A stretch of 34,985 nt of DNA from Fimbriimonadaceae bacterium. Its GTDB lineage: Bacteria > Armatimonadota > UBA10988. Location of the stretch: NCBI GenBank assembly GCA_020850355.1, contig JADZEX010000057.1, positions 1 through 34,985 of the forward strand. The letters run 5' to 3'. Every line of letters starts with the position of its first letter. Within the stretch, counting starts at the first letter, position 1. Under the pieces are notes generated by a model, which ran no database searches, was not told the DNA's origin, and saw only the letters and a list, made by a program, of their open reading frames with translations. The translations under genes and the position numbers were made by a program. Positions 2,661-33,220 of this stretch are shown here, in pieces.

Positions 2661-2683
2661 GATTCCGAAATAGGAGCATTCCG

Positions 2684-3166
2684 GTGGTGGTGCCTGCGGA
2701 CGAGGTCCAGCAGCGGGTCGAGAAGCTGGCGACGGCTTGTCGGCAGGTTGGGGTGAAGCTGACGCACCAGCGGTTGGAGATCTTCCGCGAGGTGGCCGGC
2801 AGTGTGGATCACCCTGACGCCGAGACCGTCTTTCGCGGTGTGCGGCAGCGCTTGCCGACGGTCTCGTTGGACACCGTCTACCGCACGCTGTGGCTGTTGC
2901 ACGACCTGGGACTGGTGCAAACGCTGGGGCCGCGGCGGGAGAGCGTGCGGTTTGATGCCAATCCGCGACGGCACCACCACTACCTCTGCGTGCGGTGCGG
3001 GCTGACCCGGGACTTTGAGAGTGCCGAGCTGGACGCGCTGGCGGTGCCGCCGGCGGCGTGCGAGTTTGGCAGCGTGCTGGGCACGCAGGTCGAGGTCCAC
3101 GGGTTGTGTGCCTGCTGTGCCGCCGCAGCCGATGGGCCGCCGCGGGAGGTGCCGCCTCCCGCGTGA
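2684..3166 (+). CDS. perR: Fur-family peroxide-sensing regulator, PerR-like
   Basis: This 160-residue Fur-family repressor has a winged-helix N-terminus (LTHQRLEIFREV, then TVSLDTVYRTLWLL at about 59-72) and a metal-binding C-terminal half. The likely regulatory-metal ligands are H43, D91, the H97-H99 cluster and D110. An Asp at the last position (TRDFES) is the PerR signature, where Fur has Glu. Two CxxC pairs (C102/C105, C142/C145) should hold the structural zinc. The GTG start at 2684 follows AGGAG (2672-2676) by seven bases. The catalase gene begins 27 bases after the stop codon, so the two are probably one peroxide-response operon, with metal-catalysed oxidation of the repressor releasing transcription. 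A Zur or Fur role is less likely given the Asp ligand and the catalase neighbour. Confidence 0.85.
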   Translation: MVVPADEVQQRVEKLATACRQVGVKLTHQRLEIFREVAGSVDHPDAETVFRGVRQRLPTVSLDTVYRTLWLLHDLGLVQTLGPRRESVRFDANPRRHHHYLCVRCGLTRDFESAELDALAVPPAACEFGSVLGTQVEVHGLCACCAAAADGPPREVPPPA

Positions 3167-3193
3167 CGGCCGTGGTGCCACTGGGAGAAAGCG

Positions 3194-4642
3194 ATGTCAG
3201 GCGACGAGCAGCAGCGCAAGTTGACGACGGCGGCCGGCGCGCCGGTGCCGGACAACCAGAATGTCCTGACGGCCGGGCCGCGCGGGCCGCAGCTCCTGCA
3301 GGATGTCTGGTTCTTGGAGAAGCTGGCCCACTTTGACCGGGAGGTGATCCCGGAGCGGCGGATGCACGCCAAGGGCTCCGGGGCCTACGGCACCTTCACG
3401 GTGACCGGCGACATCACCCGCTACACGCGCGCCGCGGTGTTCTCGCGGATCGGCCTGGCCACCGACCTGTTCGTGCGCTTCTCGACGGTGGCCGGCGAGC
3501 GCGGCGCGGCCGACGCCGAACGCGACATCCGCGGCTTCGCGATCAAGTTCTACACGGCCGAGGGCAACTGGGACCTGGTCGGCAACAACACCCCGGTGTT
3601 CTTCCTGCGCGACCCGCTGAAGTTCCCCGATCTGAACCACGCGGTGAAGCGCGACCCGCGCACCAACTTGCGCAGCGCCACCAACAACTGGGACTTCTGG
3701 ACCGCGCTGCCCGAGGCGCTGCACCAGATCACGATCACCATGAGCGACCGCGGCATCCCGGCGTCCTACCGCCAGATGCACGGCTTTGGCAGCCACACCT
3801 TCAGCCTGATCAACGCCGCCGGCGAGCGGCACTGGGTGAAGTTCCACCTGCACTCGCAACAGGGCATCGCGAATCTGACTGACGCCGCGGCCGCAGCGCT
3901 GATCGCGCAGGACCGCGACAGCCACCAGCGCGACCTGTACAACGCCATCGAGGCCGGCGACTACCCGCGCTGGACGATGTCGGTCCAGATCCTCAGCGAC
4001 GAGCAGGCGCAGCAACTGCCCTACAACCCGTTCGATTTGACCAAGGTCTGGTACCACCGCGACGCGCCGCTGCAAGAGGTCGGCGTGCTGGAACTGCACC
4101 GCAACCCGGCCAACTACCATGCCGAAGTTGAGCAGGCCGCCTTCAACCCGGCCAATGTCGTGCCGGGGATTGGCTTCTCGCCTGACAAGATGCTGCAAGG
4201 TCGGCTGTTCAGCTACGGCGACGCGCAGCGCTACCGGCTGGGCGTGAACCACCACCAGATTCCGGTCAACGCCCCGCGCTGCCCCTACCACGCCTACCAC
4301 CGCGACGGCGCGATGCGCGTCGACGGGAACTACGGCAGCACCCTGGGCTACGAGCCGAACAGTGCCGGCGAATGGCAGCAGCAGCCGGACTACGCCGAAC
4401 CGCCGCTGGCGCTGAGCGGGGCGGCAGCGCATTGGGATCACCGCGAGGATGACGACTACTTCACCCAACCGGGGCTGCTGTTCCGCCTGCTGACGCCGGC
4501 CCAGCAGCAGGCGCTCTTCGAGAACACGGCCCGCGCAATGGGTGACGCGCCGGAGGCGATCAAGCGCCGGCACATCGCCCACTGTGCCGCTGCCGATCCG
4601 GCCTACGGCGCCGGCGTGGCCGCCGCCCTCGGGCTGGCCTGA
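3194..4642 (+). CDS. katA: Monofunctional haem catalase
   Basis: This 482-residue haem catalase breaks hydrogen peroxide down to water and oxygen in the cytoplasm. The distal catalytic His58 lies in [11 protein letters not shown] and Asn131 in [12 protein letters not shown]. The proximal haem ligand is Tyr341 in [12 protein letters not shown]. The length and the absence of a C-terminal flavodoxin-like domain point to a small-subunit, clade-3 type enzyme. The ATG follows GGGAGA with normal spacing. It lies directly behind the PerR-like gene on the same strand, which suggests peroxide-induced co-transcription. No residue expected at the active site is missing. Confidence 0.95.
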
Positions 4643-23814: not shown

Positions 23815-25056
23815 ATGGACGGCACGGATTCGGTGGAAACGATGCGGCGATCCGCCAACACGGCCGCCGCCGCGCAGGATGTTCGCAGCAGCACCAGCGG
23901 CGGGCTGGCCGTCGCGCGCCGGCCGCTGCACATCGCCTTCGCCGGGATCCTCACCGTGATCGGCGCGCTGCTGGGTTACCGCGCCGCCGAGTGGTACCTC
24001 GGTTACCTCAGCCGCAGCAGCTCGGCCTTGAGCAGCCTGGCGACCGGCGGCTGGGCCGCCAGCAACCTCGTCGCGGTGACCCTGCTGGGCACCCTGCTGG
24101 GCTTCCTGCTGGCCTCGGTGACCTTCCGACAGATTGTCGCGCTGGTCCCGCGGATCGAGAACCTGCCCGTCGAGGACAAAGTCGCCGGGATGATCGGCGT
24201 GGTGCTCGGCCTGATCGTCGCGGTGCTGCTGCAGCCGCTGGTCAAGAGCATCCCGACCTTTGGCAACGCCCTGGTCGTGCTGGCTTACGTCTTCGGCGTC
24301 ACGGCCGGGGTGCTGGTGATGGTCAGCATGAAGAAGGAGCTGGTCGGCATGTTTGCCAGCGGCTCCTCGGCCGCGACCGATGAGGAAGTGCAGGCGCTGC
24401 GCGACCACGAGGCCAAACCGAAGCTGCTCGACACCAACGTGATCATCGACGGCCGGATCTTGGACATTTGGAACAGCGGCTTCATCGAGGGCGAGCTGCT
24501 GGTGCCGCAGTTTGTGTTGGACGAGCTGCAGACGATTGCCGACAGCGCCGACGACCTGAAGCGGGCGCGCGGCCGGCGCGGGCTGGAGCTGCTCAACCGC
24601 ATGAAGGACGAGGTGGCCAACTTCGGCATCCTCCGCGCCCGCGACTACGCCGTGCCGGTCGACGATGTGACCGGGGTCGACCAGAAGCTGATCCGCCTGG
24701 CGACGGGCATGGAAGCCTCGCTGATCACCAACGACTACAACCTCAACCGCGTCGCCGACGTGCAGGGCATTCCGGTGCTCAACGTCAACCGGCTGGCGAT
24801 TTCGCTGAAGCCGGTGGTGATCGCCGGGGAGGAGATGACTGTCAACATCATTCGACCGGGCCGCGATCCGGGGCAAGGCGTCGCCTACCTTGACGACGGC
24901 ACGATGGTGGTCGTCGAAGACGGCGAGCCGAAAGTCGGCCGGGTGGTCGATGTGGTCGTCAACAGCTTGCACCAGACGGTGGCCGGCAAGATGATCTTCG
25001 CGCAGCTCAAAGACGGCGCGAACCACGAGCACCGGCGAGGCGGCTCGAGCCGGTGA
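23815..25056 (+). CDS. yacL: Membrane PIN-TRAM domain protein, YacL-like
   Basis: This 413-residue protein has four N-terminal membrane helices (about 38-57, 83-104, 122-141, 151-172), then a PIN nuclease-like domain (about 203-330) with acidic residues D206, E237, D289 and D307, and a TRAM RNA-binding domain (about 335-398). PIN-TRAM proteins of this form are conserved next to ispD/ispF in many bacteria (YacL in Bacillus). The nuclease activity and target are not established. The ATG at 23815 has a modest GGAAG site; a second in-frame ATG at 23842 is possible. Its stop codon overlaps the ispDF start (GTGA). Confidence 0.85.
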
Positions 25057-26216
25057 GCCGCGCGGCGAGCGCTGCGGTGATCCCCGCGGCTGGCAGCGGC
25101 ACCCGCTTCGGCGCCCCGCAGAACAAGCTGCTGCAGCCGCTGGCCGGGCAGACCGTGCTGTACCACACCCTGCGCGCCGTCGGCGCCGCCGGCCTGCAGC
25201 AGGTGGTGCTGGTGACTCGCCCCGACGAACGCGACACCCTCGGCGCGGTGGCCGCCGCGGCTGGCTGCGCGGTGACCTTCGCCGACGGCGGGCCGACGCG
25301 ACAGGCGTCAGTGATCCGCGGCCTGCAGCAGGTCCGCGCCGAGATTGCCCTGGTCGCCGTCCACGATGGCGCCCGGCCGCTGGTGACGCCCGAGCTGTTC
25401 CACCGCGCCCTCGACGCCGCCGCGGCGCATGGTGGCGCGGTGGTCGCCGTGCCGGTCGCCGACACACTCAAGCGCGTCGCCACACAGACGGTCGTCGGGG
25501 CCGTCGACCGGAGCGAGTTGTACGCGATGCAGACGCCGCAGGCGTTTCGCGTCGAGTGGCTGCGCGAGGCAGCGCAGTACGCTGCGGTGACCGGCTTCGA
25601 GGGCACCGATGAGGTCAGCCTGATCGAGCACTGGGGCCGCCCGGTGCGAGTGGTGCCGGGCGCGGCGCGGAATGTCAAGGTGACTCACCCGGCCGATCTG
25701 GAGTTGGCGGCGGCGCTGCTGGGCGGGCGCGAGGAGCAAGCCGTGCGCGTCGGTTACGGTTACGACATCCACCAGCTCGTCGCCGGGCGCCAACTGTGGC
25801 TCGGCGGGGTAAGAATCGAGCATGAGACGGGACTCCTCGGACACAGCGACGCCGATGTGCTGCTGCACGCGATCTGCGATGCGCTGTTGGGCGCCATCGG
25901 CGACGGCGACATCGGCCGGCACTTTCCCGACACCGACCCGGCCTACCGGGGCATCGCCAGCCTGCGGTTGCTGGAAGCGACCGCTGCCCGGGTGGACGCG
26001 GCCGGGTACCAGGTGGTCAATGTCGACGCCACCCTGATTGCTGAACGACCGAAGATTGCGCCGCACGTCGGGCAGATGATTGCCCGCATCGCTGCGGCCG
26101 CCGGCCTGCGGGCTGAGCAGATCAACATCAAGGCCACCACCAACGAAAAGCTCGGCGCGCTGGGACAGCAGCAGGGCATCGCCGCGCACGCCGTGGCGAG
26201 TGTCGTGCGACGCTGA
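25053..26216 (+). CDS. ispDF: Bifunctional IspD/IspF enzyme of the MEP isoprenoid pathway
   Basis: This 387-residue fusion has an IspD cytidylyltransferase half (1 to about 225; AAGSGTRFG at 12-20, [10 protein letters not shown] at 103-112) and an IspF cyclodiphosphate synthase half (about 231-387; YGYDIHQL with metal ligands D238 and H240, then H272 in LLHAICD, and ATTNEKLG). It makes CDP-methylerythritol from methylerythritol phosphate and cyclises the phosphorylated product. Only IspE, acting in between, is separate and absent here. GTG at 25053 overlaps the YacL stop. All conserved motifs are present in both halves. Confidence 0.95.
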
Positions 26217-26788: not shown

Positions 26789-27627
26789 GCCCCACCGACC
26801 GCCGGCTGATCGTCAACGCCGACGACTTCGGGCTCTCCGACCGGGTCAACCAGGCGGTCGCCAGCGCCCATCGCGACGGCGCGCTGTCGAGTGCCAGCCT
26901 GCTGGTCAACGCCCCGGCGACCGCGGCTGCGGTGCGCCTGGCCGCCGCGCTGCCCGGTCTGGGGATTGGGCTGCACCTGGCCTTGACCGAGCTGGCACCC
27001 CTCACCACCTGCCCCGCGCTGGCGCCGGGTGGACGCTTCCCGCCGCACCACCAGCAGGTCTTCCGGCGGCTCCTGGCGGAGCAGGTGCCCCGCACCGAGA
27101 TCGCCGCCGAAGTCCGCGCGCAGTTTGCGGCGGCGCGGGACAGCGGGCTGCGGATCGACCATGTCGACGGCCACGGCCACGTGCATCTGTTGCCCGGCGT
27201 GCTGGAGGCGGTGGTCGCCGCTTGCGCCGAGTTCGGCGTGCCGGCGCTGCGCTGGCCGGTCGAGCCGGCCTGGGAACCGCCCGGCCTGACGCCGGGGCTG
27301 GGGGCGCGGCTGAAGCGCTGGTTGCTGCGCCGGCTGGCCCAACGCGGGGAGCCACTGGTGGCCGGCCTGGCGCGGCCGGCGGCGTTCTTCGGTCTGGCGG
27401 CCAGCGGGCGGGTCGACCAGCACCTCTTGCTGGCGCTCGCGGTGACGCCGTGGGCGGGGGTCGCCGAGCTGATGGTGCATCCCACGACGGTCGATCAGGC
27501 GGAGTACCCGGCCTACTGTGGCGCGCGCGAACTGGCGGCGTTGACCAGCGCCGCGGTCGCCGCGGCGTTGCCGCCGCGGGTCACTTTTCGGGAGTTGCCG
27601 GCGCCGGGTCCGGTGGCGCGTCCTTGA
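26785..27627 (+). CDS. YdjC/ChbG-family carbohydrate deacetylase-like protein
   Basis: This 280-residue protein has the family motif NADDFGLS (Asp13/Asp14), GLHLAL (His64) and a histidine cluster HVDGHGHVHLLP (H126, H130, H132, H134) suitable for a metal-dependent deacetylase. ChbG removes an acetyl group from chito-oligosaccharides, while HpnK of hopanoid clusters belongs to the same family. With an HpnA-like gene about 8 kb away HpnK is a possible identity, not a firm one. The GTG start overlaps the hpf stop codon. Its last 47 bases overlap the convergent small-protein gene. Confidence 0.82.
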   Translation: MSPTDRRLIVNADDFGLSDRVNQAVASAHRDGALSSASLLVNAPATAAAVRLAAALPGLGIGLHLALTELAPLTTCPALAPGGRFPPHHQQVFRRLLAEQVPRTEIAAEVRAQFAAARDSGLRIDHVDGHGHVHLLPGVLEAVVAACAEFGVPALRWPVEPAWEPPGLTPGLGARLKRWLLRRLAQRGEPLVAGLARPAAFFGLAASGRVDQHLLLALAVTPWAGVAELMVHPTTVDQAEYPAYCGARELAALTSAAVAAALPPRVTFRELPAPGPVARP

Positions 27628-28108
27628 GGCCGGGAATCACCTCGGTGCCGTAGGGCACCGGCAGCTTCGCCCGCCGCAGCGGTTCCAGGCCGACCACCAG
27701 CCAGCGGCCGCCCTGCTTGCGCAGCCGGAGTTGCTGCACGTCGGCGTCGTCGCGGTAGACCCACTCGACGCGCGCGGCGGCCTCGCCGTCGAGCACTTCC
27801 ACCTTGCTCACCGCGACGCCCGTGACCCGGCTGCTGAACTCCCGCAACTGCGCCGCCAGAGCCCGCCGGTCGGTCGCCGCCGCGGCCAGCTCGGCCCGCA
27901 GCGGGTCGCCGAAGCTGGCCAGATAGAGCCGCACCTGGCCCTGGCGCATCGCCGCCACCAGGCCATCGTAGATCGCGTTGCTGACCTCCTCGGTCGGCGA
28001 GGCGCCCGGCCGCGGGCGCGGGCCGCTGCCACGCGTGCCGACCGCCAGGGCCACCGCGAAGAGCAGCAACAACACCACCACCAGCCGGTTCGCGCCCGCG
28101 CTCTTCAC
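27581..28108 (-). CDS. Small membrane-anchored or secreted protein at end of hfl operon, unknown
   Basis: This 175-residue protein has one N-terminal hydrophobic helix (about 8-24), a Pro/Gly/Arg-rich linker (to about 38), then an alpha-beta domain (about 40-147) of NTF2-like appearance (SNAIYDGLVAAMRQGQVRLYL near the start, VEWVYRDDADVQQLRL and GRWLVVGLEPL near the end). The GTG start overlaps the stop codon of the upstream hflK paralogue (GTGA), so it belongs to that operon. The function is not recognised; a partner of the SPFH complex outside the membrane is a guess. Confidence 0.7.
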   Translation of the reverse strand: MKSAGANRLVVVLLLLFAVALAVGTRGSGPRPRPGASPTEEVSNAIYDGLVAAMRQGQVRLYLASFGDPLRAELAAAATDRRALAAQLREFSSRVTGVAVSKVEVLDGEAAARVEWVYRDDADVQQLRLRKQGGRWLVVGLEPLRRAKLPVPYGTEVIPGLKDAPPDPAPATPEK

Positions 28109-29076
28109 GGCGTGCCTCCCGGAGTCGGCGCGGCGGGCGGGGTGTGCAGCAGACCGAGGTCGATCGGCCGGCCGCCGCCCTGCACCACCGTGGTCTTCAG
28201 CCGGGGGCCGAGTTGCTCCCAGGTCTCCAACTGCAGCCGTGCCCGCGTCACCCCGGGCGCGGCCCGCTCGGCGGCCAGCAGCTTGCTGAACCGCGCCGCC
28301 CGGCCTTGTGCCTCGTTGATCACGCGGGTGCGGTACCCCGCGGCTCGCGAGCGCAGCTCGGCGGCCTCGCCCCGCGCTTGCGGCAGCAGCTCGTTGGAGT
28401 AGCCGGTGGCGTCGTTGATCTTGCGCTGGTAGTCCTGCCTGGCGCCGGCCACGTCGTCGAACGCCTGCTGCACGTCGGGTGGCGGCTTGACCGCCTGCAG
28501 CAGATTCGCGGCGCCGCTGAGGTTGAGCAGGGTGACCCCCAGTCCAAGCTGCTCGAGCCGCGCCTGAGCCGCGGTCAGCGTCCGGCGGCTGACCTCCTGC
28601 TGGCCGCTGGTCATCAACGGATCGACCCCGGTCGAGGCGATCGTCGCCGTCAGCTCGGCCTGCACCGCGGCGGCCACCAGGCGGTCGACCTCGCGCGCCT
28701 CGAAGAGGTAGGCGACCGGGTCGCTGATGGTGTACTGCACCGCCGCGCGGACCCGCACCAGGTTCTGGTCGGCGGTCAGGTGCTCGGCGCTCTCGCCGGT
28801 CTCCTGGCCCACCAGGTTCAGCGCCGGGGAGCCGCCGATGCTGACCAGCCGCGGTTGCGCCAGCCGCAGGCGGTCGACCCGGCTCAGCGGCCAGGGCAGC
28901 CGCCACCAGACGCCGGCCGTGACCGGCTGCGCCGGGCGACCGCAGAGCCGCACCACGGCCACCTGGTCGGGCCCCACGACGTAGAACCCGGTGAGCAGCC
29001 AGAGCAGCCCCAGGTAGCCACCGCGCCGCCCGGCGGGCAGCATCCGCCAGGTCGCCAGCCAGCTCGCCGGGCTCAT
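28105..29076 (-). CDS. hflK: HflK-like SPFH protein 2
   Basis: This 323-residue SPFH (band 7) protein has one N-terminal membrane helix (about 19-40) followed by VGPDQVAVVRLCGRP and the HflK-type block LTADQNLVRVRAAVQYTISDPVAYLF (about 100-125, in two parts). A coiled-coil-like region (about 200-265) contains DDVAGARQDYQRKINDATGYSNELLPQARGEAAEL. HflK and HflC form a membrane cage that modulates the FtsH protease. Its start overlaps the hflC stop (ATGA), and it is the second HflK-like protein in the operon. No ftsH is in the window. Confidence 0.85.
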   Translation of the reverse strand: MSPASWLATWRMLPAGRRGGYLGLLWLLTGFYVVGPDQVAVVRLCGRPAQPVTAGVWWRLPWPLSRVDRLRLAQPRLVSIGGSPALNLVGQETGESAEHLTADQNLVRVRAAVQYTISDPVAYLFEAREVDRLVAAAVQAELTATIASTGVDPLMTSGQQEVSRRTLTAAQARLEQLGLGVTLLNLSGAANLLQAVKPPPDVQQAFDDVAGARQDYQRKINDATGYSNELLPQARGEAAELRSRAAGYRTRVINEAQGRAARFSKLLAAERAAPGVTRARLQLETWEQLGPRLKTTVVQGGGRPIDLGLLHTPPAAPTPGGTP

Positions 29077-29957
29077 CGCGCTGCTCCGCCCGGGCCCGCC
29101 GTGAGGCCTTTGAACAGCGGGGAGTCCGCCGACAGCACGACGGTGGTGTCCTTCTCGAAGACCTTGTCGTAAGCCTCCAGCGAGCGAGTGAACTTGTAGA
29201 ACTCCGGATCGGCGTTGTGCGCGGCGGTGTAGGTACGGGTCGCCGTCGCGTCGCCGTCGCCGCGAATGCGTTCGGCGTCGCGGTAGGCCGCGGAGAGGAT
29301 CTCCTCCTTCTGACGGTCGGCCTCGGCGCGGATCCGACGGGCCTCCTGCTCGCCCTCGGCGCGGTACTTGCGCGCGATGCGGTCGCGCTCGGCACGCATC
29401 CGGTCGAACACCGACTGCTTGTTGGCCTCAGGCAGGTTGATCCGGCGCAGCCGCACGTCGACCACCTGGATGCCGTACCGGGTGGCGGCGATCTGCTGCG
29501 TCTCGGCCAACACGGCGTCGGTCAGCGCGGCGGTCTTCACGCCGCCGGCCGTCTCGAGGTTGATCAGCTCCTCCATCGCGGTCCGCCCCAGCGCCGCGGT
29601 GAGCAGCCCGCGCACGGTTTCCTCCAGCCGCAGTTCGGCGTACAGCGGCGTGCGCACGGTGCGGTAGAACAGCGCCGGGTCGCGCGGATCGATCTGCCAG
29701 CAGACGAACCAGTCGACCAGCAGGTTCTTCTTGTCGGCGGTCAGGCACTCCGACGGCCGCGGCGAGTAGAGGCGCACCCGCCGGTCGAACTTGCGGCGGC
29801 CCTGCCACGGCCACTTGAGGTGCAGCCCCGGCTCGACGACCCGCCGCACCACGCGGCCGGTCGGCCCGAAGGCGGTGACAATCGCCACCTGCGTCACATC
29901 GACAGCGTAGACACTCAGCAGCAGCAGCAGGCCACCGCCGATCAGGGCGCGCTTCAT
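29073..29957 (-). CDS. hflC: HflC-like SPFH protein
   Basis: This 294-residue SPFH protein has an N-terminal membrane helix (about 4-20), then the HflC block ADKKNLLVDWFVCWQIDPR and a long helical part (about 180-265: ARKYRAEGEQEARRIRAEAD, then RQKEEILSAAYRDAERIRGDGDA and HNADPEFYKFTRSLEAY), which is characteristic of HflC. It would pair with one or both HflK-like neighbours to form the cage around FtsH. ATG at 29957 overlaps the stop of the upstream ATPase-HflK fusion gene, and its end overlaps the second hflK by ATGA. Confidence 0.93.
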   Translation of the reverse strand: MKRALIGGGLLLLLSVYAVDVTQVAIVTAFGPTGRVVRRVVEPGLHLKWPWQGRRKFDRRVRLYSPRPSECLTADKKNLLVDWFVCWQIDPRDPALFYRTVRTPLYAELRLEETVRGLLTAALGRTAMEELINLETAGGVKTAALTDAVLAETQQIAATRYGIQVVDVRLRRINLPEANKQSVFDRMRAERDRIARKYRAEGEQEARRIRAEADRQKEEILSAAYRDAERIRGDGDATATRTYTAAHNADPEFYKFTRSLEAYDKVFEKDTTVVLSADSPLFKGLTAGPGGAAR

Positions 29958-32900
29958 GGCGTGCCACCTCCCTTGCCACCCAGCCCCGGCAGGCTGGGAA
30001 GCTGCAAACCCAAGAAGCCCTGGTTGCCACCGTCCGCGGCTGGCGCGGCTGGCGGCGTGGTTGGGGTGCTGGCAGCGCGCGGCGCCACGGGCGCGCTGGT
30101 GGCCGGCGTGGCCGGCGTGGCCGGCGTGGCTGGCGTGGCGGGCGCCGCGGGCGCGGCCGGGGCGGGCACAGCCACCCCACCGGGGTCGACCGCGTTCGGG
30201 TCGACCGGCGGCGTCGCCAGCGCGCGGATCGCGTCGGCCAGGGCGCGGTCGACCGACCAGAACTGCCGCCGGGCCACCACCATCGGGTCCAGCACCAGCT
30301 TGCGGCGGCCCGCTAGCGCCGTTTCGACACCCTCGTACCAGAGTCGCAGCAGCGTCACCTGCCGGCCGCGGGCAGCGGCCTGGCGTCGTTGGCGGAACCG
30401 TGCAGCGTCGCCCTCGGCGCGGGCGATGCGGCCGGTGCGGGTCGCCAGGGCCACCTCGAGCTGCGCCGCGGCGTCGCCCCGGGCCAGTGCAAGCTGCTCG
30501 TTGGCGTAGGCCTCCGCCTCGTTGATCTTCTGCTGTTTGTTCTCGTAGGCGCTGCTCACGGCGCGGAACGACGGCACCACCTCCAGCGGCGGATGCACGT
30601 CGGCCAGCTCGACTTCGGTGATCCGCACGCCCAGGCCGAGCTGCTCGCAACTGGCCTGTAGGCGTTGCGCGGTGCCGACTTCGACGGCGTGGCGGGCCGT
30701 CGTCAGGACCTCGTCCAGCGGCAGCCGACCGATCACCGCCCGCAGCGCCTCTTCGCCCAGCGCCCGGAGCTGCGTCGCGGGCTGCAGCGTGGCAAACAGA
30801 TAGGCCTGGGGCGCGGCGACCTGGTAGCGGAAGACCGCCTGCACCTCGACGAAGTTCTCGTCGCCGGTCAGCATCAGCGCTTCGTCCGGCAGCCGGCGAT
30901 AGGTGCCGGCCTGATGCGCGCTGTTCCAGTCGTACTGCGCCGTGGCGGGCGGCGCGCCGCGCTGGCGGGGCAGGGTGCGGAAACCCAGCTCGACCACCTG
31001 CAGCTCGGCCGGCCGGAGCCGCGTGGCGCGGCCCAGCGGCCACCACGGTTTGAACGCCAGCCCCGGCCCGTAGACCCCGGCCGGCCAGCCCAGGATGCGC
31101 ACCACGGCCACCTGGTCGGCGCCAATCGGCACCAGGCAACTGCCCAGCCAGAGCAGCGCCAGCAGCCGCAGCTTGAGCCGCAGGAGGCCCCGCCAGTGAC
31201 CGGCGACCCAGCCCACCGCGCCGTCGATATCGAGCGCCAGGAAGCGTTGCAGCAGGCGGCGCAGACCGTGCAGCAGACGTCCGCCGCGGGAGTCCGCGCG
31301 GGGCTCGAACCCCAGCAGGCGGACCGCGTTGAGTAGCACCAGCAGCGAGCCGACCTGGTGGAAGACGGCGGCCTGCGTCGGCGTCAGGCGGCCGATCGCC
31401 GAGAGCACCACGGCCACCCCATTGAGGCCGAAGGCGAAGCCCAGGATGCTCAGCCGGATCGTGAACAGGACCTGCCGCGAGACCTCCAGCAGAAGCGGCA
31501 CCTGCTGCAGCGGATCGCCCAGCAACACGACATCGGCGGCCTCGGCGGCGATCTCGGAGCCGGTGTCGGCGACGGCGATGCCGCAGTCTGCCTCGGCCAG
31601 CGCAGGGGCGTCGTTGATGCCGTCGCCAACCATCGCGACGCGCTCGCCAGCGTTGCGGCGCGTGCGCACCCAGGCTGCCTTGTCGGTCGGCAACTGCTCC
31701 GCCCAGACCTCGTCGATGCCCACCTCGCGCGCCACCGCGGCGGCCACCGCCGGGCGGTCACCGGTCAGCAACGCAATCCGTTGCAGGCCGCGGCGGTGCA
31801 GCTCGGCGACGGCCGCCGGCGCTTCCTGGCGTAGCCGGTCGCGGAGCCCCAGCAGACCTAGCAAGACGCCGTCACGGGTCACGAAAACCGTCGTCAGGCC
31901 GTCGCCGGCGAGCCGCTCGGCGGCCGCGGCGGCGTGCTCCGGCAGGTCGACGGGCAGCTCGCTCAGGAGGTGCGCATTGCCCACCGCCAGCCGACCCTCG
32001 GCGCCTTCGGCGAGCATCCCGGCGCCGGGCCGGGCCGTGCTGCTGGTGGGCGCCGTGAAGGTCAGCCCGCGCGCGCTCGAGGCGCGGCCAATGGCCTGGG
32101 CCAGCGGGTGCTCGCTGCCCGCCTCGGCCGCCGCAGCGACCCGCAAGACCTCGTCCGCGCTGCCCTCCCAGGCCAGCACTTCGGCCACCTCCAGCCGCGC
32201 CTGCGTCAACGTGCCGGTCTTGTCGAAAGCCAGGGTGCGGACGCGGGCCATCGCCTCCAGCACGTCCCCGCCCTTGACCAGCACGCCGTGTCGCGCCAGC
32301 CGACCGATGCCCGCCAGCACGGCCGCCGGAGTCGCCAGAATCAGGGCACAGGGACAGGCCACCACCAGCACCGCCACGGTGCGGTACCAGTCGCGACTGA
32401 CCAACCAGGTGCCCAGCGCGCAGAGCAGCACGACCGGCAGGAAGTAGGCCGCATAGAGGTCGGCCGCGCGCTGCACCGGCGCCTGCTGCTCCTGAGCTGC
32501 CCGCACCCGCGCCACCACCTGGCCCAGCGTGGTCGCCGCCCCGACGCGGGTCGCCTCGACCTGCAGCACGCCGTACAGGTTCTGCGTGCCGCTGAAGACC
32601 GGGTCGCCGACGGTCCGGTCGACCGGGATGCTCTCGCCGGTCAGGCTGGACTCGTCGAGACTGCTCTGCCCGCCGCGGACCACGCCATCGACGGGCAGCC
32701 GCTCCCCGGGCCGGACCGCCAGCAACGCGCCGAGCGGCACCTCGTGGCTGGGCACGTCGACCTCGCCGTCGGGCGTGATCAGGTGGGCGGTCTGCGGCCA
32801 CAGCTCGAGCAGCCGCTGCACGGCGCGGGCGGTGCGCGCGAAGGCGATGGCCTCGAGGCTCTCGCCGGTCATCGCGATGAACACCACCTCGGCCGCGGCC

Positions 32901-33220
32901 AGCGGTTCGCCGATCCAGAGGGCCGCCCAGGTGGCGATGGCCAGCGCCAGGTCGGCGCCGATCGCACCCTCCAGCGCGCCGCTCAGCGAACTGAAGGTCA
33001 CCCGCACCCCGCCCAGCACCGCGGCGATCGCCGCCGGTCGCCAGGGCAGCCCCCAGCACGGCTCGCCCCGCGTCACGAACACGTCGAGCACCACCAACAG
33101 GCCGAGCAACGCCGTCTGCACGAACAGCCCGACGGGCAAGCCCGGATCCTCGGCCGACTCGTCCGCCGCCGGCTGCGGGGCAACGGGCGGCGCGGCGCCC
33201 TGGCGATCCTCGGGTTCCAT
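29954..33220 (-). CDS. P1B-type metal ATPase fused to HflK/SPFH domain
   Basis: This 1088-residue protein joins two normally separate families. Residues about 30-640 are a heavy-metal P-type ATPase: TGES (194-197), the metal-site CPC (289-291), phosphorylated Asp333 in DKTGTLT, SEHP (369-372), TGD (486-488) and GDGINDAP (532-539). There is no N-terminal heavy-metal-binding (HMA) domain, but about 25 residues of Ala/Pro-rich leader. From about 640 a linker leads into a new membrane helix (682-698) and an HflK-type SPFH domain (about 700-1000: GADQVAVVRILG, LTGDENFVEVQAVFRYQVAAP, AYENKQQKINEAEAYANEQL). The tail (1001-1088) holds PAT repeats and a glycine-rich end. The frame is continuous and followed by hflC with a 4-base overlap. 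The metal (Zn, Cd, Cu) cannot be told from the sequence. Confidence 0.92.
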   Translation of the reverse strand: MEPEDRQGAAPPVAPQPAADESAEDPGLPVGLFVQTALLGLLVVLDVFVTRGEPCWGLPWRPAAIAAVLGGVRVTFSSLSGALEGAIGADLALAIATWAALWIGEPLAAAEVVFIAMTGESLEAIAFARTARAVQRLLELWPQTAHLITPDGEVDVPSHEVPLGALLAVRPGERLPVDGVVRGGQSSLDESSLTGESIPVDRTVGDPVFSGTQNLYGVLQVEATRVGAATTLGQVVARVRAAQEQQAPVQRAADLYAAYFLPVVLLCALGTWLVSRDWYRTVAVLVVACPCALILATPAAVLAGIGRLARHGVLVKGGDVLEAMARVRTLAFDKTGTLTQARLEVAEVLAWEGSADEVLRVAAAAEAGSEHPLAQAIGRASSARGLTFTAPTSSTARPGAGMLAEGAEGRLAVGNAHLLSELPVDLPEHAAAAAERLAGDGLTTVFVTRDGVLLGLLGLRDRLRQEAPAAVAELHRRGLQRIALLTGDRPAVAAAVAREVGIDEVWAEQLPTDKAAWVRTRRNAGERVAMVGDGINDAPALAEADCGIAVADTGSEIAAEAADVVLLGDPLQQVPLLLEVSRQVLFTIRLSILGFAFGLNGVAVVLSAIGRLTPTQAAVFHQVGSLLVLLNAVRLLGFEPRADSRGGRLLHGLRRLLQRFLALDIDGAVGWVAGHWRGLLRLKLRLLALLWLGSCLVPIGADQVAVVRILGWPAGVYGPGLAFKPWWPLGRATRLRPAELQVVELGFRTLPRQRGAPPATAQYDWNSAHQAGTYRRLPDEALMLTGDENFVEVQAVFRYQVAAPQAYLFATLQPATQLRALGEEALRAVIGRLPLDEVLTTARHAVEVGTAQRLQASCEQLGLGVRITEVELADVHPPLEVVPSFRAVSSAYENKQQKINEAEAYANEQLALARGDAAAQLEVALATRTGRIARAEGDAARFRQRRQAAARGRQVTLLRLWYEGVETALAGRRKLVLDPMVVARRQFWSVDRALADAIRALATPPVDPNAVDPGGVAVPAPAAPAAPATPATPATPATPATSAPVAPRAASTPTTPPAAPAADGGNQGFLGLQLPSLPGLGGKGGGTP
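30102..30137. repeat. Four 9-bp tandem repeats in the ATPase-HflK tail
   Basis: The unit GCCGGCGTG is repeated four times (the last with one change) and encodes the PAT-PAT-PAT-PAT stretch at residues about 1028-1040. Such a run may expand or contract by slippage without a frameshift. Confidence 0.8.

What the first reader, a model, noticed from the sequence alone, without database searches (positions are those of the whole stretch)
29954..33220. Metal-transporting P-type ATPase fused to an HflK/SPFH scaffold
A complete P1B ATPase (CPC, DKTGT, GDGINDAP) runs in one continuous frame into a complete HflK-type SPFH domain with its own membrane helix. HflK normally forms a cage that restrains the FtsH protease, and metal ATPases normally work alone. 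Physical linkage suggests metal efflux embedded in a SPFH microdomain, or metal-controlled membrane proteolysis. To my knowledge this is not a described system; a search is needed.
Basis: partly seen in the sequence, partly recalled or inferred. Interest (0 to 1): 0.82.

Follow-up and report, generated by a model that had tools for sequence, protein, structure and literature searches.

The report
Metal pump fused to SPFH scaffold
A bacterial metal pump is made as one protein with a subunit of an HflK-type membrane scaffold, in an operon kept in 14 related genomes, and other bacteria fuse the same kind of scaffold to two quite different metal exporters, so the scaffold probably works as part of a metal-export machine.

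Summary
The fusion is real. One 1,088-residue frame (29954-33220, minus strand) holds a P1B-type heavy-metal ATPase with intact catalytic motifs, a positively charged linker, a ninth membrane helix and an HflK-type SPFH domain. It starts a four-gene operon with 4-base overlaps: ATPase-HflK, HflC, a second HflK-type protein (HflK2) and a small membrane-anchored protein. The fusion occurs in 14 of 291 genomes of the phylum (11 families); the fused ATPases form one clade. An assembly artefact is excluded.

It is not isolated. A second operon in this genome fuses a CDF exporter domain to HflK, followed by HflC, HflK2 and a separate P1B ATPase. In other phyla HflK is fused to CDF or SO_0444-type Cu/Zn exporters, with HflC and HflK2 following where examined. 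The closest published system is unfused: Pseudomonas aeruginosa PA2434-2439 (HmtA ATPase beside three HflK/C-like genes, raised under zinc depletion). No description of the covalent fusions was found in the library searched.

Most likely function: metal export by a pump built into an HflK/C-like periplasmic dome. Metal, direction and any role of FtsH are untested. Verdict: new variant of a known kind.

The parts
29954..33220 (-). P1B-type ATPase fused to HflK-type SPFH protein, 1088 aa, first gene of the operon
   Evidence: open frame; family matches; fusion in 14 genomes
31316..32953 (-). heavy-metal P-type ATPase core, residues 90-635
   Evidence: NCBIfam TIGR01525, 547 bits against cut-off 346
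32348..32356 (-). CPC metal-site motif in helix 6, residues 289-291
   Evidence: sequence; kept in all fused orthologues that cover it
32210..32224 (-). DKTGT phosphorylation motif, residues 333-337
   Evidence: sequence; kept in all orthologues that cover it
31604..31627 (-). GDGINDAP hinge motif, residues 532-539
   Evidence: sequence; kept in orthologues that cover it
31343..31360 (-). HQVGSL in helix 8, signature shared by nearly all fused ATPases (HEVSSL in one)
31175..31300 (-). junction linker, residues 641-682, net positive, predicted cytoplasmic
31121..31174 (-). predicted ninth membrane helix, about residues 683-700, leading into SPFH
   Evidence: hydropathy scan
30503..31126 (-). 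SPFH (Band_7) domain, residues 699-906
   Evidence: Pfam PF01145, E 4e-17
30254..30502 (-). HflK-like segment after SPFH (helical and C-terminal part), residues 907-989
   Evidence: aligned to solved HflK
29957..30223 (-). Pro/Ala-rich C-terminal tail, not conserved in orthologues
29073..29957 (-). HflC-type SPFH protein, 294 aa; overlaps the fusion gene by 4 bases
   Evidence: TIGR01932 190.8 bits, cut-off 134.4
28105..29076 (-). second HflK-type SPFH protein (HflK2), 323 aa; overlaps hflC by 4 bases
   Evidence: TIGR01933 177.5 bits, cut-off 159.4; orthologues
27581..28108 (-). small protein with one N-terminal membrane helix, 175 aa, GTG start; overlaps HflK2 by 4 bases
   Evidence: conserved across operons; weak Rv0361_Cterm match under cut-off

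Best explanation
The operon encodes a metal-export complex in which a P1B ATPase is built into an HflK/HflC-type SPFH assembly. The ATPase part moves a soft transition metal out of the cytoplasm. Its C-terminus runs through a linker and a ninth helix, so that the SPFH domain lies in the periplasm as in HflK. There it co-assembles with the operon's HflC and HflK2 into a ring or dome, placing the pumps at the membrane inside or along the base of the dome; exported metal is released into a bounded periplasmic space or handed to a partner. Shown: the fusion, its conservation, intact catalytic motifs, four-gene linkage, and parallel fusions of the same SPFH type to CDF and SO_0444-type exporters. 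Inferred: topology (hydropathy and charge only), hetero-assembly, metal identity, outward direction, release under the dome.
For: ATPase and SPFH domains in one frame. Fusion in 14 of 291 genomes, 11 families; HflC next in all, HflK2 in all but one where it lies on another contig, small protein in 11. HflK2 orthologue found in exactly these genomes plus one truncated contig. Fused ATPases form one clade, SH-aLRT 99. Linkers net positive. CDF-HflK fusions and SO_0444-HflK fusions above the curated Cu/Zn efflux cut-off, with HflC and HflK2 following in the seven operons read. HflK-type assembly region aligns to solved HflK.
Against: No experiment on any member. HmtA, the characterised ATPase beside such genes, is reported as an importer (PMC10393844 says this needs confirmation). 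No metal regulator was recognised beside the operon. Deletion of the P. aeruginosa SPFH trio gave only slight phenotypes (PMC13086221), though metals were not tested. Metal specificity cannot be read from the motifs.
Confidence: 0.6

Rival explanations
1. Import rather than export: the fused ATPase is an HmtA-like uptake system used under metal shortage, and the SPFH dome gathers or protects periplasmic metal for it.
For: HmtA (PA2435) lies beside three HflK/C-family genes; the cluster is raised in a znuA mutant and under zinc depletion (PMC4542158, PMC11761036). HmtA overexpression raises cell Zn and Cu (PMC10393844).
Against: The other transporters fused to the same SPFH type are exporter families, CDF and SO_0444. 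P-type metal ATPases otherwise act as exporters (established knowledge). The fused ATPase was not shown to be an HmtA orthologue.
Confidence: 0.2
2. Quality control: HflK/C-type parts recruit or hold off FtsH so that pump turnover is controlled (metal-controlled proteolysis). The fusion fixes the pump as the client.
For: HflK and HflC of E. coli modulate FtsH (established; PMC12048511 and PMC13220708 seen). The genome has two FtsH genes above cut-off and no other hflK/hflC pair.
Against: No ftsH in the operons read. The fused SPFH is under the HflK equivalog cut-off, and transporter-fused HflKs lie apart from canonical HflK and HflK2 on the tree (SH-aLRT 93). Does not by itself explain why only metal exporters are fused.
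Confidence: 0.15
3. Simple tether: the fusion only places the pump in a membrane microdomain and no closed dome is formed.
For: SPFH proteins are widely described as microdomain organisers (PMC13086221). One polypeptide does not prove a dome.
Against: The segment after SPFH aligns to HflK through the C-terminal part, and three distinct SPFH subunits are kept together in the operon, which fits a hetero-oligomer better than a bare tether.
Confidence: 0.15
4. Assembly or sequencing artefact joining two genes.
For: None found.
Against: Same junction in 13 other genomes with the same following genes; coding phase continuous across the junction.
Confidence: 0.01

Closest known systems
P. aeruginosa PA2434-PA2439: HmtA ATPase with three HflK/HflC-family genes (the SPFH trio PaFlo5-6-7 of strain PA14 is most likely the same locus; inferred)
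   Same: A P1B ATPase gene clustered with three SPFH genes of HflK, HflC and HflK/C type.
   Different: ATPase is a separate gene, not fused. Reported as importer and raised under zinc depletion. Its sequences were not held, so orthology was not tested.
CDF-HflK operons: contig 80 of this genome (L039), plasmid of Aquibium oceanicum (L084), L143, L144, L148, L153 (found here)
   Same: Metal exporter domain fused in front of an HflK-type SPFH; HflC and HflK2 follow in the operons read. L039 and L084 also have a P1B ATPase gene after the trio.
   Different: Fused transporter is a CDF domain; the ATPase, where present, is a separate gene.
SO_0444 Cu/Zn efflux permease-HflK operons (L145-L147, L149, L154, L155, L160, L161; found here)
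   Same: Metal exporter fused in front of an HflK-type SPFH; HflC and HflK2 follow in the operons read.
   Different: Unrelated transporter fold; no ATPase in the fusion.
E. coli HflK/HflC with FtsH
   Same: HflK- and HflC-type SPFH proteins as neighbours; same domain order after the membrane helix.
   Different: No transporter domain; only one HflK; two-gene SPFH set; known partner is FtsH.
Stand-alone P1B ATPases (CopA, ZntA, CoaT types)
   Same: Core, CPC, DKTGT, GDGxNDAP.
   Different: No SPFH; helix-8 signature HQxxSL differs from those of most unfused ATPases compared; no HMA domain here.

Membership tests
P1B-type heavy-metal ATPase | match to TIGR01525 above curated cut-off | tested here: met
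   547.2 bits, cut-off 346.25
P1B-type heavy-metal ATPase | CPx metal motif, DKTGT, GDGxNDAP, TGES | tested here: met
P1B-type heavy-metal ATPase | metal-stimulated ATPase activity and transport | not testable with these tools
   needs biochemistry
HflK (FtsH modulator, TIGR01933 equivalog) | score above curated cut-off | tested here: not met
   154.2 bits, cut-off 159.4; HflK-type, not filed as an HflK equivalog
HflK (FtsH modulator, TIGR01933 equivalog) | one membrane helix then periplasmic SPFH | tested here: inconclusive
   helix before SPFH and net positive linker fit; no topology experiment
HflK (FtsH modulator, TIGR01933 equivalog) | partner HflC encoded next to it | tested here: met
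HflK (FtsH modulator, TIGR01933 equivalog) | binds or modulates FtsH | not testable with these tools
   no ftsH in the operon; two FtsH elsewhere
HmtA / PA2434-2439-type cluster | P1B ATPase and three HflK/C-type SPFH genes in one cluster | tested here: met
HmtA / PA2434-2439-type cluster | ATPase as a separate gene | tested here: not met
   fused in all 14 genomes
HmtA / PA2434-2439-type cluster | sequence orthology to PA2435-PA2439 | not testable with these tools
   P. aeruginosa chromosome not held
HmtA / PA2434-2439-type cluster | induction by zinc shortage, Zur control | not tested
   no Zur-box search made; the FUR-family gene at 2681-3163 sits beside a catalase gene, about 24 kb away
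transporter-HflK / HflC / HflK2 operons (group proposed here) | metal exporter domain fused N-terminally to HflK-type SPFH, followed by HflC and HflK2 | tested here: met
transporter-HflK / HflC / HflK2 operons (group proposed here) | fused HflKs of all transporter types lie apart from canonical HflK and HflK2 | tested here: inconclusive
   SH-aLRT 93 in an unrooted quick tree with long branches

The most novel reading that the evidence does not exclude
The SPFH trio HflK1-HflC-HflK2 is a general docking dome for metal exporters: its first subunit is a socket whose N-terminal transporter has been exchanged between unrelated folds (P1B ATPase, CDF, SO_0444 permease and at least one unnamed multi-helix domain), so that metal leaves the cytoplasm into a closed periplasmic chamber.
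Probability: 0.4. Interest if true: 0.88.

Novelty: new variant of a known kind. Interest (0 to 1): 0.7.

Why it matters
What HflK/C-like SPFH assemblies do besides FtsH control is open, and why such genes sit beside a metal ATPase in P. aeruginosa is unexplained. A protein in which pump and scaffold are one chain, with parallel fusions to two other exporter folds, says that scaffold and exporter act at the same spot and in fixed ratio. It gives a direct handle: a single polypeptide to purify, image and assay for metal transport within an SPFH assembly.

Tried and rejected
Assembly join or missed stop: rejected. Chance ORF: rejected, both domains match at E 4e-17 or better. Separate HflK made by internal initiation: no conserved start with a ribosome-binding-like sequence seen in the linkers (the script took the wrong stretch for G028), not fully excluded. 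Plasmid or viral carriage: no place covers 80% of the fusion in the 5,000 best plasmid records; two viral-contig scans gave no relative. PDB: no chain among the best 60 joins the two parts. P1B fusion outside the phylum: none in about 210 genomes of other phyla, a sparse sample. One search was run in the wrong reading frame and is not used. Metal regulators beside the operon: none recognised among the neighbours checked. The 633-aa HflK hit on contig 30 is a stomatin-like protein with an overlong frame, not a fusion.

Full report
Observation. The frame 29954-33220 (minus) encodes 1,088 residues without a stop. Residues 90-635 match the heavy-metal P-type ATPase model far above its cut-off (E 5e-164), and residues 699-906 match Band_7 (E 4e-17). 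The HflK model scores 154.2 bits, just under its 159.4 cut-off. TGES, CPC, DKTGT, SEHP and GDGINDAP are present; there is no HMA domain. Codon-position GC shows one unbroken coding phase across the junction.

Operon. Three genes follow on the same strand, each overlapping the one before by four bases: an HflC (29073-29957), a second HflK-type protein here called HflK2 (28105-29076), and a small protein with one N-terminal membrane helix (27581-28108). HflC and HflK2 pass their curated cut-offs. The small protein has no Pfam family but is conserved across the orthologous operons, with an invariant W and a YGT near its end.

Conservation. A profile of the junction and SPFH half found the fusion in 14 of 291 genomes of the phylum, in 11 families; three of the fourteen are cut by contig ends but span the junction. 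HflC follows in every one. HflK2 follows in every one except G014, where it lies on another contig. The small protein was found in 11. A profile of HflK2 found its high-scoring orthologue in exactly those 14 genomes and in G275, whose contig begins inside or just before hflC. The hypergeometric chance of that overlap is 6e-23 if genomes were independent, which they are not. The fused ATPases are one clade (SH-aLRT 99). The fused SPFH domains are one clade in a first tree (90); in a larger tree a CDF-HflK row falls among them. Distribution is patchy, so losses or transfers must have occurred.

Anatomy. A simple hydropathy scan shows P1B-type helices, then a net positive linker, then a further helix directly before the SPFH domain. 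By the positive-inside rule the linker is cytoplasmic and the SPFH domain periplasmic, the topology of HflK. The SPFH part and the segment after it align to solved HflK (E 3e-30). The PDB holds 12 HflK chains per entry for that sequence (48 chains in 4 entries). If the fused HflK took those places, one dome would carry up to twelve pumps; this is inference. In helix 8 nearly all fused ATPases share HQxxSL, unlike most unfused ATPases compared; one unfused ATPase (L015) also has HQ. Metal specificity cannot be read from this.

Parallel fusions. A second operon in the same genome (contig 80) has a CDF-family domain fused to HflK, then HflC, HflK2 and a separate P1B ATPase with an SPC motif. [quoted passage not shown] In genomes of other phyla, HflK is fused to CDF domains (four loci) or to permeases that pass the curated cut-off for SO_0444 Cu/Zn efflux transporters (eight proteins, 349-371 bits against 300). 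In the seven such operons read in full, HflC and HflK2 are adjacent. Three more loci of the phylum (L129, L131, L132) have the trio with an adjacent CPC-type P1B ATPase; in two of them HflK carries a multi-helix domain of no known family. In an unrooted tree all transporter-fused HflKs lie on one side of a branch from canonical HflK and HflK2 (SH-aLRT 93). One origin of the fused HflK with exchange of the transporter is the simplest reading. The tree is a quick one with long branches, and one row added by script (xK_L134_1157) is probably an HflC.

Literature. In P. aeruginosa the ATPase HmtA (PA2435) lies with PA2437-PA2439, of HflC/HflK families; all rise in a znuA mutant, with a weak Zur site (PMC4542158), and the proteins are elevated under zinc depletion, only some of them significantly (PMC11761036). 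A 2026 survey describes a three-SPFH operon (PaFlo5-6-7) of patchy distribution; its deletion gave slight phenotypes, and metals were not tested (PMC13086221). That this is the PA2437-2439 locus is my inference. HmtA import awaits confirmation (PMC10393844). The SPFH evolution paper does not mention P-type ATPases or metals (PMC2636767). Ten searches of an open-access library found no report of a transporter-HflK fusion; most subscription papers are not held.

Mechanism. The best reading is a metal exporter built into an HflK/HflC/HflK2 dome. The strongest argument is convergence: three unrelated exporter folds occupy the same position in front of the same SPFH type. FtsH control is possible but has no support here beyond family resemblance. 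Direction and metal remain open.

Verdict. Observation confirmed; a conserved, unusual architecture; new variant of a known association; interest 0.7.

Noticed in passing
L039 3449-9642 (G000 contig 80): Second SPFH operon in the same genome: CDF-HflK fusion, HflC, HflK2, then a His-rich P1B ATPase with SPC and HEGST motifs.
   Followed up: yes
L145 4086-6239, L146 5404-7635, L147 4261-6804, L149 5174-7306, L154, L155, L160, L161: SO_0444-type Cu/Zn efflux permease fused to HflK in genomes of other phyla; apparently undescribed.
   Followed up: partly
L129 2144-4024; L131 7384-9267: HflK-type protein with an N-terminal multi-helix domain of no Pfam family, in trio operons with a P1B ATPase whose helix 8 reads HN(I/V)G(A/S)VAVV.
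   Followed up: partly
L084 4061-12798 (Aquibium oceanicum plasmid, conjugative): CDF-HflK operon with a PPIase and a P1B ATPase on a plasmid; the deposited hflK start lies inside the longer open frame and the annotation does not mention the CDF domain.
   Followed up: partly
L043 2494-5469, L044 11074-13932, L047 2200-5229, L090 1089-3926: A large gene with a partial DUF3604 match lies directly upstream of the fusion, same direction, in four genomes but not in the window.
   Followed up: no
L150 1161-3110; L178 418-2448: HflK-type proteins with long N-terminal extensions (about 350-380 residues in the open frame) that match no transporter family; the true starts may lie further in.
   Followed up: no
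window 24906-26213: IspD and IspF (YgbB) domains in one reading frame, a bifunctional IspDF.
   Followed up: no
window 2681-4639: FUR-family regulator followed by a catalase gene, a likely PerR-type pair.
   Followed up: no
G000 contigs 48, 43: Two FtsH genes above the family cut-off, neither on a contig with an hflK/hflC operon; the genome shows no other hflK/hflC pair.
   Followed up: partly
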